Assembly: GCA_003280135.1 (NCBI GenBank)
Contig: QCFW01000005.1
Span: 41,306-105,305, forward strand
DNA: 64,000 bases
Source: Prochlorococcus sp. AG-363-N16
GTDB lineage: Bacteria; Cyanobacteriota; Cyanobacteriia; PCC-6307; Cyanobiaceae
Direction of reading: 5' to 3'
Both the position numbers and the translations under genes were made by a program. Below the pieces are notes generated by a model. The model did not search any database. It was not told the origin of the DNA and saw only the letters and a program-made list of their open reading frames with translations. This document shows, piece after piece, positions 5,378 through 62,253 of this stretch; position 1 is the first letter of the stretch; every line of letters begins with the position of its first letter.

Positions 5378-6136
5378 TTAATCCCAACGATATAAAGACT
5401 TGGCATCACAACCATTCTTTAGGATTAGTGAACCATCAGAGTTCAAACCTTCGATGTCCCAAGTTTTTCCAGTTTTAGAATCATAAAAGTGTCTTACATA
5501 AAGAAGTTTTTCTGCTTCCCTGCAAAGAGATTGATTATCATTTAAAAGAGAAATTACATTTTCTAAAGAAATCAATATTTTCGAAGTCCATTCAGTAACT
5601 GAAATATTCTTTTGACCCAATACTTGAGTCAAGCTGATTGCCTCTGTAGATACAGGGTTTCGAACATTTAGGCCTATACCAATACGAGCAGATTGAATAA
5701 TTCCTCCTCTACTAATAACCCTAGGCAAAAAACCAGCCAACTTCTTCTGAGAAACCATTAAGTCATTAGGCCACTTTAACGATACAGGAATACGACTACC
5801 ATGAAGCATCTTTGCGACTGCAACTGCAACTGCCAATCCAAATAGTCCTGTAGAACGAACTGGGGCACCAAGAGGGATTGCAGCACTTAACCATATCCCT
5901 CCTTTAGGTGAACTCCATTTACGATCATATTGTCCCTTACCAAATCTCTGACGCGCCGCCAAAACCACCCGTGGGGAATCATTGATCCAAGGGTTTTCTT
6001 CTAGCCATTGAGAAAGGAGCTTCTCTGTGCTTGCACAGACAGGTTTATAGCGGATCTGCCATGCCTTTGATGAATTATGAGCTTTTAGTGCACTAGCAAT
6101 TAAAGCAGCTCCAGTAGAAGGTAATGCTTTGAACAT
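5378..6136 (-). CDS. birA: Biotin-[acetyl-CoA-carboxylase] ligase
   Basis: Attaches biotin to the biotin carboxyl carrier protein of acetyl-CoA carboxylase through a biotinyl-AMP intermediate, so it supports fatty acid synthesis. The catalytic-domain motifs are present: RQRFGKGQYDRKW (the RxxxGRGxxxRxW adenylate loop, about residues 63-75), SLKWPNDL with the conserved lysine, and GIGLNVRNP. There is no N-terminal helix-turn-helix, so it is the monofunctional enzyme and not a BirA repressor. Length (252 aa) is usual for that type. Convergent with the ABC ATPase gene (19-bp gap) and divergent from the DUF721 gene. Confidence 0.9.
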   Translation of the reverse strand: MFKALPSTGAALIASALKAHNSSKAWQIRYKPVCASTEKLLSQWLEENPWINDSPRVVLAARQRFGKGQYDRKWSSPKGGIWLSAAIPLGAPVRSTGLFGLAVAVAVAKMLHGSRIPVSLKWPNDLMVSQKKLAGFLPRVISRGGIIQSARIGIGLNVRNPVSTEAISLTQVLGQKNISVTEWTSKILISLENVISLLNDNQSLCREAEKLLYVRHFYDSKTGKTWDIEGLNSDGSLILKNGCDAKSLYRWD

Positions 6137-6215: not shown

Positions 6216-6723
6216 TTGAAAGAATCTGAACCAAAATCAATTTTCGATAGATTTCAAAAAAAACAACCCTTCATCTTTACTTAAATGTCTAGATGCATTA
6301 AACAGCGACTTCAAAAAAAATCAGAAAATAGCTTCTTTATGGAAAGATTGGCCTAAAATTGCTGGTGAACAACTTTCTCCACATTGCACTCCTCTAAGTC
6401 TTTATAAAAACATTCTAGTAGTGGGTGCCAATCATCCTCAATGGATACAAGCTCTAATCTTTAATAAACCACAACTATTAAAAGCGCTAAAAGAAAAAGG
6501 CCATGACATTAAGGATATAAAAATAAGAAATTATTTTCAAAAGAAAAACCCCAAAGCTCATGCTGAAAAAGAAGTTTGGGCAAATCACCCAAGCAGAATT
6601 GATATTCATGGGACTTCTCAATGCTCTGTTTGCAATCTTCCTGCACCTTCAGGAGAAATATCTTTATGGGGCAAATGTGGACTATGCAGAAGAAAAGATT
6701 TATCCACGAAAAATAATTATTAG
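6216..6723 (+). CDS. DUF721/DciA-like protein with C-terminal zinc ribbon; apparent frameshift at an A8 run
   Basis: The family includes DciA, the helicase loader or operator of bacteria that lack DnaC. A TTG start at 6216 gives a reading frame beginning KESEPKSIFDRFQK that hits a stop at 6282-6284. The +1 frame continues without stop through LLKCLDALNSDF, IASLWKDWPKIAGEQLSPH and VGANHPQWIQAL to the stop before 6724. The two frames join at AAAAAAAA (6256-6263); reading seven A instead of eight gives one continuous protein with a normal DUF721 N-terminus. The C-terminus has paired CSVC and CGLC motifs, a likely zinc ribbon. In the downstream frame the first GTG (6421) lies inside the conserved domain, so it is an unlikely true start. 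The gene may be frameshifted, rescued by slippage, or misread in this sequence. Confidence 0.7.
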
Positions 6724-7430
6724 CCTCTAGGTTTCTCCATCAATAAAATTCCCATTTGACCTCTCGCAAGAAGTTGATATCGAACATTTTCAAAACCTGC
6801 ATCAATAGCAATTTGTTTTTGAACAGTTCCATTAGGAAAATTTTGCAAACTTGACTCTATATACTCATATTCTTTCTTAAGTTTAAACAAAGAGGCTATA
6901 GGTACTACAATTAACCGTAAATATACTTTCTGAAATAATGGATTTATTGATCCGTTTTCAAAAGAGTTAAAATCTAAAATGCCCGCCCTTCCTCCAGGCT
7001 TTAAAAGCCTATAGACTTCTTTGATGCCTTCTTTAGTGTTACTTAAATTCCTAAGCCCATAAGCCATAACGACCCCATTAAATGAATTTCTAGGCAAGCA
7101 ATTCTCTAAAACATCTTGTTTAATAAAAGTTATTTGAAACTCTTTTTCTTTTATCACTCTTTTCTTAGCCAAAGCTAATTGATGAGAAGAGAAATCAATC
7201 CCTAAAACATTCCCTTTTGGCTTCAAGTATCTTGCTATTAATACTGTCAAGTCCCCTGTACCGCAGCATAGGTCAATCCATTTCTCCCCTGGTATAGGTT
7301 GCAAAAACTTCAAAAGCTTTCTTTTCCAAATTCTATGTAATCCGAAACTCAACAAATCATTTAAAAAATCATACCTTGGAGCAATTTTGTTAAAAAGTTC
7401 TTCTATTTTTCCTGGCATTAGACGATTCAT
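6720..7430 (-). CDS. menG: Demethylphylloquinone / 2-phytyl-1,4-naphthoquinone methyltransferase (UbiE/MenG family)
   Basis: SAM-dependent methyltransferase carrying out the last step of phylloquinone (photosystem I quinone) synthesis in cyanobacteria. Family motifs: FNKIAPRYDFLNDLLSFGLHRIWKR near the N-terminus, SAM motif I WIDLCCGTGDLTVLIAR (about residues 51-67), the acidic loop GIDFSSHQL, and YGLRNLSNTKEGIKEVYRLLKPGG before the motif III region. Length 236 aa is typical. In phototrophs this UbiE homologue is assigned to phylloquinone or plastoquinone methylation. Its end overlaps the end of the convergent DUF721 gene by four bases. The same strand continues upstream with hisF. Confidence 0.92.
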   Translation of the reverse strand: MNRLMPGKIEELFNKIAPRYDFLNDLLSFGLHRIWKRKLLKFLQPIPGEKWIDLCCGTGDLTVLIARYLKPKGNVLGIDFSSHQLALAKKRVIKEKEFQITFIKQDVLENCLPRNSFNGVVMAYGLRNLSNTKEGIKEVYRLLKPGGRAGILDFNSFENGSINPLFQKVYLRLIVVPIASLFKLKKEYEYIESSLQNFPNGTVQKQIAIDAGFENVRYQLLARGQMGILLMEKPRG

Positions 7431-18921: not shown

Positions 18922-19120
18922 CTTCTAGTGAGTCTGCTAGGTAAAAACTAATAGCCAGCTCTTGACTATAGAGCAAGAAAAGCTGATTACTAGTGAATCT
19001 ACATCTTAATTGAGCAACAAGAAATCTTAATCAAAGCTAAATATCTATGTTTTTGTATCAGCATGAACTACCCATGATTGCATCTATATCAGAATATATT
19101 TATGTAGCAAAAGCTACAAA

Positions 19121-19190
19121 CGTTCACCTTGGAAACAAGGCGCAGCACGTGTCAGGCCATGGAACGGGGACCTGATCGTCCAAAGGACAA
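19121..19190 (+). promoter_or_regulatory. Probable glutamine-type riboswitch (glnA / Downstream-peptide RNA class) with switch-like hairpins
   Basis: P1 can form between cgttc (19121-19125) and gaacg (19162-19166). P2 is cctt/aagg (19127-19130 with 19137-19140) closed by loop ggaaac. The 5' CGTTCACC and 3' GGAACG ends match the glutamine-binding RNAs of cyanobacteria; the middle (cgcagcacgtgtcaggccat) differs from the classical glnA core. Downstream, gtcc (19178-19181) can pair with either ggac at 19168-19171 or ggac at 19185-19188. The second lies next to the ATG at 19195, so the two pairings are mutually exclusive and could mask the start region. Class assignment is inference from memory of the families. 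Confidence 0.5.
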
Positions 19191-56967: not shown

Positions 56968-57085
56968 ACCTGGCATTGAGCTATTTTCTCAGGGGGCTAC
57001 CCCCCAAATATCTTCGCCGCTGATGCGTTTCACAACCGAGTTCGAGATGGATCGGAGTGGTGCCACATCGCCATGAACACCAGGA
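56968..57085 (-). rRNA. rrf: 5S ribosomal RNA
   Basis: The reverse strand reads TCCTGGTGTTCATGGCGATG, then CTCCGATCCATCTCGAACTCGG and ends AATGCCAGGT; the two ends (CCTGG/CCAGG) pair as in all 5S. About 118 nt. Last gene of the rRNA operon. Ends are approximate by a few bases. Confidence 0.95.
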
Positions 57086-57101
57086 AAAACACTCTCAAGA
57101 T

Positions 57102-57125
57102 GAACCTTGAGAACTGCATAGGTAA
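57102..57125 (-). repeat. 23S rRNA processing stem, 3' arm
   Basis: This 24-mer (gaaccttgagaactgcataggtaa on the plus strand, here given as core actgcataggtaa) is the reverse complement, with one mismatch, of 60235-60258. The two arms bracket the 23S gene and would pair in the precursor RNA, as for RNase III processing stems. Confidence 0.85.
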
Positions 57126-57168
57126 TGAATTGAATAAAGTCTTTTCTTAAAAAAATAAGATTGAAAAA

Positions 57169-60042
<2,874 letters not shown>

Positions 60043-60433
60043 ATATAATTAATCATCTAAAATTTGCCTAATTAATATAGTTAAACCTGAAATAAATTCA
60101 GATGTTAAATCTATATAATCAGGGAAATATAGACTCGGCTTTTTACTTAAGAATCAAACATTTACTAAATCAAAAAAGCCTAAGCTTAATTAATAAAGTA
60201 TATGCATCCATGAGATGCTTTATTCTTTCCAGACTTACCTATGCAGTTGTCAAGGTTCTACTGAACTTTCTGGTAATTCGTTTAAGAAGTACCGAGAGCC
60301 CAGCGTCTTATCAGCCTTAAAAAAATGATTAATCATAAGGAATGATATGAAGCTAGGTTCATTCAGTGAACAACACCTAGATCACAAAAACAAAAACAAT
60401 CTCCATAAAAAGAGTTATTAGGTAGTTGATCAG
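60043..60433. other. ITS between tRNA-Ala and 23S
   Basis: 391 bp, AT-rich, no gene. It holds the 5' arm of the 23S processing stem (60235-60258). Nothing else recognised. Confidence 0.8.
60235..60258 (-). repeat. 23S rRNA processing stem, 5' arm
   Basis: ttacctatgcagttgtcaag (first 20 of the arm) pairs with the arm at 57102-57125 with one mismatch. In transcription order it is upstream of the 23S gene, about 190 nt before its 5' end. Confidence 0.85.
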
Positions 60434-60506
60434 TGGAGGTAAGCGGACTCGAACCGCTGACATCCTGCTTGCAAAGCAGGCGCTCTACCAACTGAGCTAT
60501 ACCCCC
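60434..60506 (-). tRNA. tRNA-Ala (anticodon TGC)
   Basis: Reverse strand: acceptor GGGGGTA/TACCTCC with a G-T pair, D arm TAGCTCAGTTGGTAGAGC, anticodon loop TTTGCAA (TGC), T arm GCGGTTCGAGTCCGC, discriminator A. 73 nt. Second tRNA of the 16S-23S spacer. Confidence 0.96.
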
Positions 60507-60515
60507 AACAACGAA

Positions 60516-60589
<74 letters not shown>

Positions 60590-60611
60590 AGAAGAATGTT
60601 TGTTGGGTGTG

Positions 60612-60634
60612 ACCTAGACAAGTTTAGGAACTGA
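60612..60634 (-). repeat. 16S rRNA processing stem, 3' arm
   Basis: agtttaggaactga (60621-60634) is the exact reverse complement of 62576-62589 in the 16S leader. acctagaca (60612-60620) also pairs with 62597-62605 with one G-U. The stem totals 23 bp with a seven-base bulge on the leader side. Confidence 0.85.
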
Positions 60635-60768
60635 AATTAAAAACTTATAAAATAATGAAAAATCAATATTAGTAAGATCTTAAGCTGAGGTACCGATCGA
60701 CCTAAGGTGACAGGACTAGTGACTGATATTTGAAATCTAGTCATCATAATCTTTTGTTTGTCTCCCTG

Positions 60769-62253
<1,485 letters not shown>

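What the first reader, a model, noticed from the sequence alone, without database searches (positions are those of the whole stretch)
6216..6723. DUF721/DciA-like gene split by an A8 run: frameshift, slippage or sequence error
The TTG-started frame ends at 6282-6284, but the +1 frame carries the rest of a normal DUF721 protein with a C-terminal CxxC...CxxC zinc ribbon. The break falls exactly at AAAAAAAA (6256-6263), a classic site for transcriptional slippage or homopolymer error. DciA-type loaders service the replicative helicase, so loss would be notable, and slippage-based expression of a replication factor would be more so.
Basis: partly seen in the sequence, partly recalled or inferred. 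Interest (0 to 1): 0.7.

Follow-up and report, generated by a model that had tools for sequence, protein, structure and literature searches.

The report
Helicase-loader gene lacking a usual start
In a marine cyanobacterium (Prochlorococcus type), the gene for a likely DNA-helicase loader looked broken by a run of eight As, but its reading frame is open and well kept and lacks any usual start codon at its front, so the A run is probably incidental and the protein is predicted to start at an unusual codon instead.

Summary
The letters are as described: a TTG frame from 6216 stops at 6282-6284, A8 lies at 6256-6263, and the +1 frame carries a DciA/DUF721 protein with a CxxC...CxxC ribbon. The reading changes. 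The sister species (Prochlorococcus AG-439-G12, 73% protein identity) has no A run there, the same net spacing, the same in-frame stop (TGA 6217), and its counterpart of the TTG frame ends at codon five. So A8 probably did not split one gene. A8 runs are ordinary here: 81 of 110 A/T runs of 8 or more in 384 kb lie inside intact genes. The oddity is that the DciA frame has no ATG/GTG/TTG for 67 codons; where the sister has its predicted TTG start, this sequence reads TCG (ungapped alignment), followed by ATA. Of 86 copies with a readable 5' side, 84 have a usual start; the exceptions are this one and a likely assembly chimera. The body shows purifying selection. Likeliest: initiation at ATA 6247 (or CTG 6226). 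Main rival: a one-base lesion or error at the start codon; another gene of this assembly has an in-frame stop that three relatives lack. A8 slippage is not excluded. In passing: cobD and cbiD also lack usual starts, and so do relatives.

The parts
6220..6723 (+). dciA reading frame, 167 codons open from the in-frame stop to the stop TAG 6721-6723; no ATG/GTG/TTG in the first 67 codons
   Evidence: Pfam DciA; single copy in the genome
6265..6720 (+). conserved DciA body (DUF721 domain plus C-terminal ribbon)
   Evidence: dN 0.175, dS 1.13 against the sister
6217..6219 (+). TGA, in-frame stop upstream of the dciA frame, shared with the sister species
6226..6228 (+). CTG, second candidate non-canonical start (CTT in the sister)
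   Evidence: inference
6244..6246 (+). TCG at the place of the sister's predicted TTG start (ungapped alignment; only 6245 differs)
   Evidence: gapped alignments spread the sister's TTG over 6240-6246
6247..6249 (+). ATA, first candidate non-canonical start, 31 codons before the conserved W
   Evidence: TTG starts at 31 codons in L012, L017, L018 and at 32 in the sister L003; inference
6216..6284 (+). TTG-started 22-codon frame; its counterpart in the sister (ATG) ends at codon 5, so probably not a gene part
6256..6263 (+). A8 run, private to this sequence among the relatives seen; probably incidental
6313..6320 (+). second A8 run, inside the dciA body, with the frame open across it
6421..6723 (+). 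GTG-started 100-aa frame, the only piece that a caller limited to ATG/GTG/TTG finds (P0006); begins in mid-domain
6622..6687 (+). CxxC...CxxC ribbon (Cys codons 6622, 6631, 6676, 6685), invariant in the 33-row alignment
5378..6136 (-). divergent neighbour, biotin/lipoate protein ligase family
6720..7430 (-). convergent neighbour, ubiE/COQ5-type methyltransferase, overlapping the end of dciA by 4 bases

Best explanation
The dciA frame (6220-6720) is open and conserved but has no ATG, GTG or TTG before 6421, the A8 run is probably incidental, and translation likely starts at the non-canonical ATA at 6247-6249, one codon after the place of the sister's predicted TTG start. Shown: the open frame, the missing usual start, the shared upstream stop, the sister's in-frame TTG, the purifying selection on the body. 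Inferred: that the ancestral TTG changed to TCG here, that the cell still makes the protein, and that AUA (second choice CUG 6226) is where it starts, giving a protein of 158 residues whose first residues are probably disordered and free to vary. Expression would be low, as with natural AUA starts elsewhere, and the protein would work as an ordinary DciA, helping the replicative helicase onto DNA.
For: No ATG/GTG/TTG for 67 codons. Sister L003/L004: same TGA, same net spacing, no A run, TTG 32 codons before the conserved W; ungapped, that TTG lies over 6244-6246 with one mismatch. P0002, P0003, P0004 all begin at that position. The 5' leader drifts in this family: outermost starts lie 29 to 52 codons before the W, 62 ATG, 19 TTG, 3 GTG among 84 copies, and residues 1-7 of the model have pLDDT under 50. 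Body under purifying selection: dN 0.175, dS 1.13, differences 31/19/58 by codon position in 147 codons; 25 columns invariant over 33 rows. Only dciA in the genome; the only PF01695 match is partial and lies in a frame that I recognise as DnaA, so no DnaC/DnaI was seen in the 82% held. Precedent in the same genome: cobD and cbiD lack usual starts too, as do relatives. Precedent elsewhere: natural AUA starts of infC, ccpN and citZ in S. aureus, about 10% of AUG (PMC13009471, passages).
Against: No Shine-Dalgarno-like stretch before ATA 6247 or CTG 6226, although none is seen before the sister's TTG either. One of ATA/ATT/ATC/CTG at a given codon is not rare (together about 8.6% of codons), so the ATA may be chance. 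The ungapped alignment of the leader is firm in its first half (19 of 26 identical, next best offset 12) and weak in its second (12 of 24, next best 10), and two of three gapped scorings split the sister's TTG over 6240-6246. The non-canonical start is not shared by the sister. This assembly has at least one gene (ion channel, L102) with an in-frame stop that three relatives lack, so point lesions or errors do occur. Window has N where most rows have G at alignment residue 55.
Confidence: 0.45

Rival explanations
1. The start codon is hit by a single-base sequence error of this amplified, 42-contig assembly (or by a very recent mutation with no replacement start): the cell's true start would be a TTG at 6244-6246, as in the sister.
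For: Ungapped, the sister's TTG and this TCG differ at 6245 alone; three relatives begin there; 84 of 86 family copies have a usual start; another gene in this assembly carries an in-frame TAA where three relatives are open.
Against: No reads to test. The leader alignment is weak just there and gapped scorings place the TTG otherwise. cobD and cbiD show that a missing usual start is not by itself an error in this lineage.
Confidence: 0.28
2. Transcriptional (or translational) slippage at A8: ribosomes start at TTG 6216 and a fraction of mRNAs with a changed A count puts them into the DciA frame.
For: Frame geometry fits a net change of one frame at 6256-6263; 8A tracts let indel-bearing genes be bypassed in a laboratory gene (PMC3812077, passages); endosymbiont cases are mentioned in PMC5009743 (passages).
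Against: The A run is absent from the sister, whose counterpart frame ends at codon 5, and the N-termini of P0002 and P0004 leave no room for it. A8 or longer on the mRNA strand is common in intact genes here: 70 such runs in 384 kb. A second A8 lies in the body.
Confidence: 0.12
3. The gene is a fresh pseudogene, or only the 100-residue C-terminal piece from GTG 6421 is made.
For: GTG 6421 is the first usual start in the frame; loss of the start would silence the gene.
Against: GTG 6421 cuts the DciA domain: its match drops to 19.9 bits, under the curated 24. DciA is essential in Pseudomonas aeruginosa (PMC5109545, passages), and 246 of 251 family genomes at least 90% complete hold a match. 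The body shows no decay.
Confidence: 0.1

Closest known systems
DciA (PF05258, DUF721), replicative helicase loader/operator
   Same: Pfam match well over the cut-off; predicted fold closest to solved DciA, 7ykm (TM 0.76 by target length) and VcDciA in 8a3v; C-terminal zinc finger is described for cyanobacterial DciA (PMC5109545, passage).
   Different: No usual start codon; by sequence profile the solved chain 7ykm is found only at E 0.41.
Bacterial genes with natural AUA/AUU starts (infC, ccpN, citZ, cvfC1 in S. aureus; PMC13009471, passages)
   Same: A conserved protein frame whose candidate start is AUA; citZ's is lineage-specific, as this one would be.
   Different: Those sites have extended Shine-Dalgarno motifs and ribosome-profiling evidence; here there is neither.
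Poly(A) slippage rescue (8A tract in M.HaeIII, PMC3812077; endosymbionts in PMC5009743)
   Same: A8 between two frames.
   Different: No sign that one gene was ever split there; the sister has neither the A run nor an open upstream frame.
Frame-shifted cI rescued by a non-natural start codon in E. coli (PMC6397469, abstract)
   Same: A gene that looks frame-shifted but is read from an unusual start in the right frame.
   Different: Laboratory circuit and an ACA codon; no such test here.

Membership tests
DciA (PF05258) | DUF721/DciA domain over the curated cut-off | tested here: met
   67.4 bits against 24; 68.3 bits in the genome search
DciA (PF05258) | fold of solved DciA domains | tested here: met
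   Foldseek first hit 7ykm, E 3.4e-4; 8a3v chains next, E about 2e-3; model pLDDT 83.5, pTM 0.51
DciA (PF05258) | no DnaC/DnaI beside it in the genome | tested here: inconclusive
   one partial PF01695 match, in a frame recognised by eye as DnaA; genome 82% complete
DciA (PF05258) | binds and operates the replicative helicase; essential | not testable with these tools
   known for P. aeruginosa (PMC5109545, passages)
gene with a non-canonical start codon | no ATG/GTG/TTG ahead of the conserved domain | tested here: met
   67 codons without one
gene with a non-canonical start codon | the unusual start is conserved in relatives | tested here: not met
   sister and family use TTG/ATG/GTG
gene with a non-canonical start codon | Shine-Dalgarno-like support or profiling/peptide evidence | tested here: not met
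   no such stretch before 6247 or 6226; profiling and peptides not testable here
programmed slippage gene | slippery run and upstream frame conserved in relatives | tested here: not met
   absent in the sister
homopolymer sequence error | relatives differ by an indel at the run | tested here: not met
   net leader length equal to the sister's; only one relative with DNA that close

The most novel reading that the evidence does not exclude
dciA is throttled here by an AUA (or CUG) start, so that loading of the replicative helicase is tied to the strictness of start-codon selection (IF3), as part of a picocyanobacterial habit of starting conserved genes (cobD, cbiD, dciA) at codons other than AUG/GUG/UUG.
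Probability: 0.12. Interest if true: 0.6.

Novelty: new member of a known kind. Interest (0 to 1): 0.33.

Why it matters
If true, a core replication gene in an abundant ocean lineage runs from a start codon that gene callers limited to ATG/GTG/TTG miss, leaving a truncated 100-residue piece in protein sets. It warns against reading 'frameshift at a poly-A' from one genome, and it points to a set of conserved picocyanobacterial genes (cobD, cbiD) whose starts deserve experimental mapping.

Tried and rejected
Rejected: A8 length error as the cause (sister has equal net length and no run). Rejected: A8 as a rare feature. Led nowhere: looking for a same-species or same-genus copy. Of the two other genomes held for the genus, G002 is the sister and G001 gave no match to dciA, to the DNA around it or to the neighbouring ligase (whose tool warns that an empty answer without a control shows nothing). 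The protein search found no other protein near identity. L083, the other copy without a start, is the reverse complement of L082 over 472 identical bases on the same contig and is likely an assembly chimera. infC was checked as a control for non-canonical starts in this genome; its frame opens with ATG. Paper searches: slippage in Prochlorococcus, AUU starts in cyanobacteria, DUF721 in cyanobacteria, cbiD start codon, other start searches; none of the listed titles or abstracts describes this case, and only the passages named in the report were read.

Full report
WHAT IS THERE. The window lies in a 42-contig, 1.40 Mb assembly, 82% complete, whose nearest named relative is Prochlorococcus AG-439-G12 (L004; L003 is the same record in the genome search). 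Between a divergent biotin/lipoate ligase gene and a convergent ubiE-type gene lies an open frame, 6220-6720, that encodes DciA (PF05258, 67.4 bits against a cut-off of 24) with a CxxC...CxxC ribbon. It is the only PF05258 match in the genome. A zinc finger in the C-terminal part is described for cyanobacterial DciA (PMC5109545, passage), so the ribbon is expected. The model of the frame from 6247 (pLDDT 83.5, pTM 0.51) is closest to solved DciA structures (7ykm, then 8a3v).

CHECK OF THE OBSERVATION. The TTG 6216 frame, its stop at 6282-6284, the A8 at 6256-6263 and the +1 relation to the DciA frame are all there. But the DciA frame itself has an in-frame TGA at 6217 and no ATG, GTG or TTG until GTG 6421. 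Of 268 open frames of at least 150 codons in 384 kb of this genome (the window plus 16 stretches of 20 kb), five run 60 codons or more before the first such codon.

THE SISTER SPECIES. L003/L004 (73% identical protein) has the same TGA and the same net length from AAAGAATC to CTTCATC: 57 positions, 38 identical without gaps; two of three gapped scorings put gaps in, and these cancel. Sliding one sequence on the other, no shift is best for both halves of the leader, clearly for the first (19 of 26, next best 12) and weakly for the second (12 of 24, next best 10). The sister has no A run. At the place of TTG 6216 it has ATG, but that frame ends at codon five (MKES*). Its predicted start is a TTG in the DciA frame, 8 codons before PSS. 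The proteins P0002 and P0004 (75% and 71%) begin at the same position. So the TTG 6216 frame and the DciA frame were probably never one gene, and the A8 is not where a gene was cut. In the ungapped alignment the sister's TTG lies over TCG 6244-6246, one base different, and the next codon here is ATA.

BASE RATES. I examined 90 dciA places: the window and 89 loci from 88 of the 360 family genomes with a match (of 400 searched), the top-ranked 28 that were fetched as loci and 60 more picked from the list, so not a random draw; eight duplicate loci were left out. An upstream stop was visible in 86. Of these, 84 have a usual start at least 22 codons before the conserved W (outermost: 62 ATG, 19 TTG, 3 GTG). 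The two without are the window and L083, the latter a reverse-complement copy of L082 on one contig and likely a chimera. The leader is thus short, variable and drifting, but a usual start is the rule. A/T runs of 8 or more: 110 in 384 kb, 81 inside intact frames of 150 aa or more, 70 of these with A on the mRNA. A second A8 lies at 6313-6320 inside the DciA body.

IS THE GENE ALIVE? Against the sister dN is 0.175 and dS 1.13 (NG86; dS near saturation), with 31, 19 and 58 differences at codon positions 1, 2 and 3 of 147 codons; YN00 failed. The protein is about as close to outgroups as the sister is (for example 91 of 152 and 94 of 147 identical to L009). 25 columns are invariant over 33 rows, the window included; at one nearly invariant G it has N. 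DciA is essential in P. aeruginosa (PMC5109545, passages), and 246 of 251 family genomes at least 90% complete hold a match. I saw no DnaC/DnaI: the one PF01695 match is partial and lies in a frame that I recognise as DnaA (no family call was made on it).

HOW IT MAY WORK. The likeliest reading is that the start moved to a non-canonical codon: ATA 6247 (31 codons before the W, the same distance as the TTG starts of L012, L017 and L018) or CTG 6226. Natural AUA starts are known; in S. aureus three non-canonical sites gave about 10% of AUG expression, and one, citZ, is lineage-specific (PMC13009471, passages). Against it: no Shine-Dalgarno-like stretch is seen, and such codons are common enough (8.6% of codons) for ATA to be there by chance. 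The main rival is a base error or fresh lesion at 6245. That this assembly has lesions is shown by an ion-channel gene (L102 710-1405) with an in-frame TAA just upstream, where the three relatives with a strong match are open. Slippage at A8 from TTG 6216 is mechanically possible (8A bypass in PMC3812077, passages) but nothing about it is conserved.

A LEAD FOUND ON THE WAY. The same test brought up cobD/cbiB (L109) and cbiD (L113), whose Pfam domains start 80 and 40 codons or so before the first usual start codon. Relatives share this. For cobD, 11 of 20 loci (own and 19 relatives) have no ATG/GTG/TTG between the upstream stop and the conserved GDP, and the gene begins within or just after the end of ilvC. 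For cbiD, 5 of 17 loci have none, and 6 of 17, own included, have ATT exactly 11 codons before TLPVW; in three of the five nearest (own, L135, L138) an AAGGA/AGGGA stands at a proper distance. Public protein sets hold truncated forms (P0046, P0160-P0162), while two proteins with RefSeq-type names, P0163 and P0167, begin where the DNA of L118 and L125 has ATC and ATT, so such starts are already accepted in some annotation. This shows that a missing usual start is no proof of a broken gene in this family; it does not prove it for dciA, where the sister has a TTG.

VERDICT.

Noticed in passing
L109:2118-3140 (-), G000 contig C4: cobD/cbiB has no ATG/GTG/TTG before codon 100 although its Pfam domain begins at residue 14; 11 of 20 loci in the family share the lack, and the gene starts at the end of ilvC (candidates ATT/ATC/CTG).
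   Followed up: partly
L113:749-1948 (+), G000 contig C7: cbiD appears to start at ATT 11 codons before TLPVW with an AAGGA-like stretch upstream; ATT at the same place in 6 of 17 loci examined, 5 of 17 without any usual start.
   Followed up: partly
L102:710-1405 (+), G000 contig C1: Ion-channel gene interrupted by an in-frame TAA just before its domain, where three relatives are open: lesion or error in this assembly.
   Followed up: partly
L098:7126-19710 (-), G000 contig C5: Open frame of 4195 codons with Ig-like domains (He_PIG, Big_9), a giant repeat-type protein; first usual start at codon 88.
   Followed up: no
window 56968-62253 (-): rRNA operon (5S, 23S, two tRNAs, 16S), which explains the local rise in G+C.
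   Followed up: no
window 19118-19176 (+): Glutamine-II riboswitch aptamer (Rfam RF01704, 65.8 bits).
   Followed up: no
L006/L017, upstream of dciA: A run of nine Cs lies in the leader of dciA in Prochlorococcus AG-436-K22, just upstream of its predicted TTG start; homopolymers recur in this drifting leader.
   Followed up: no
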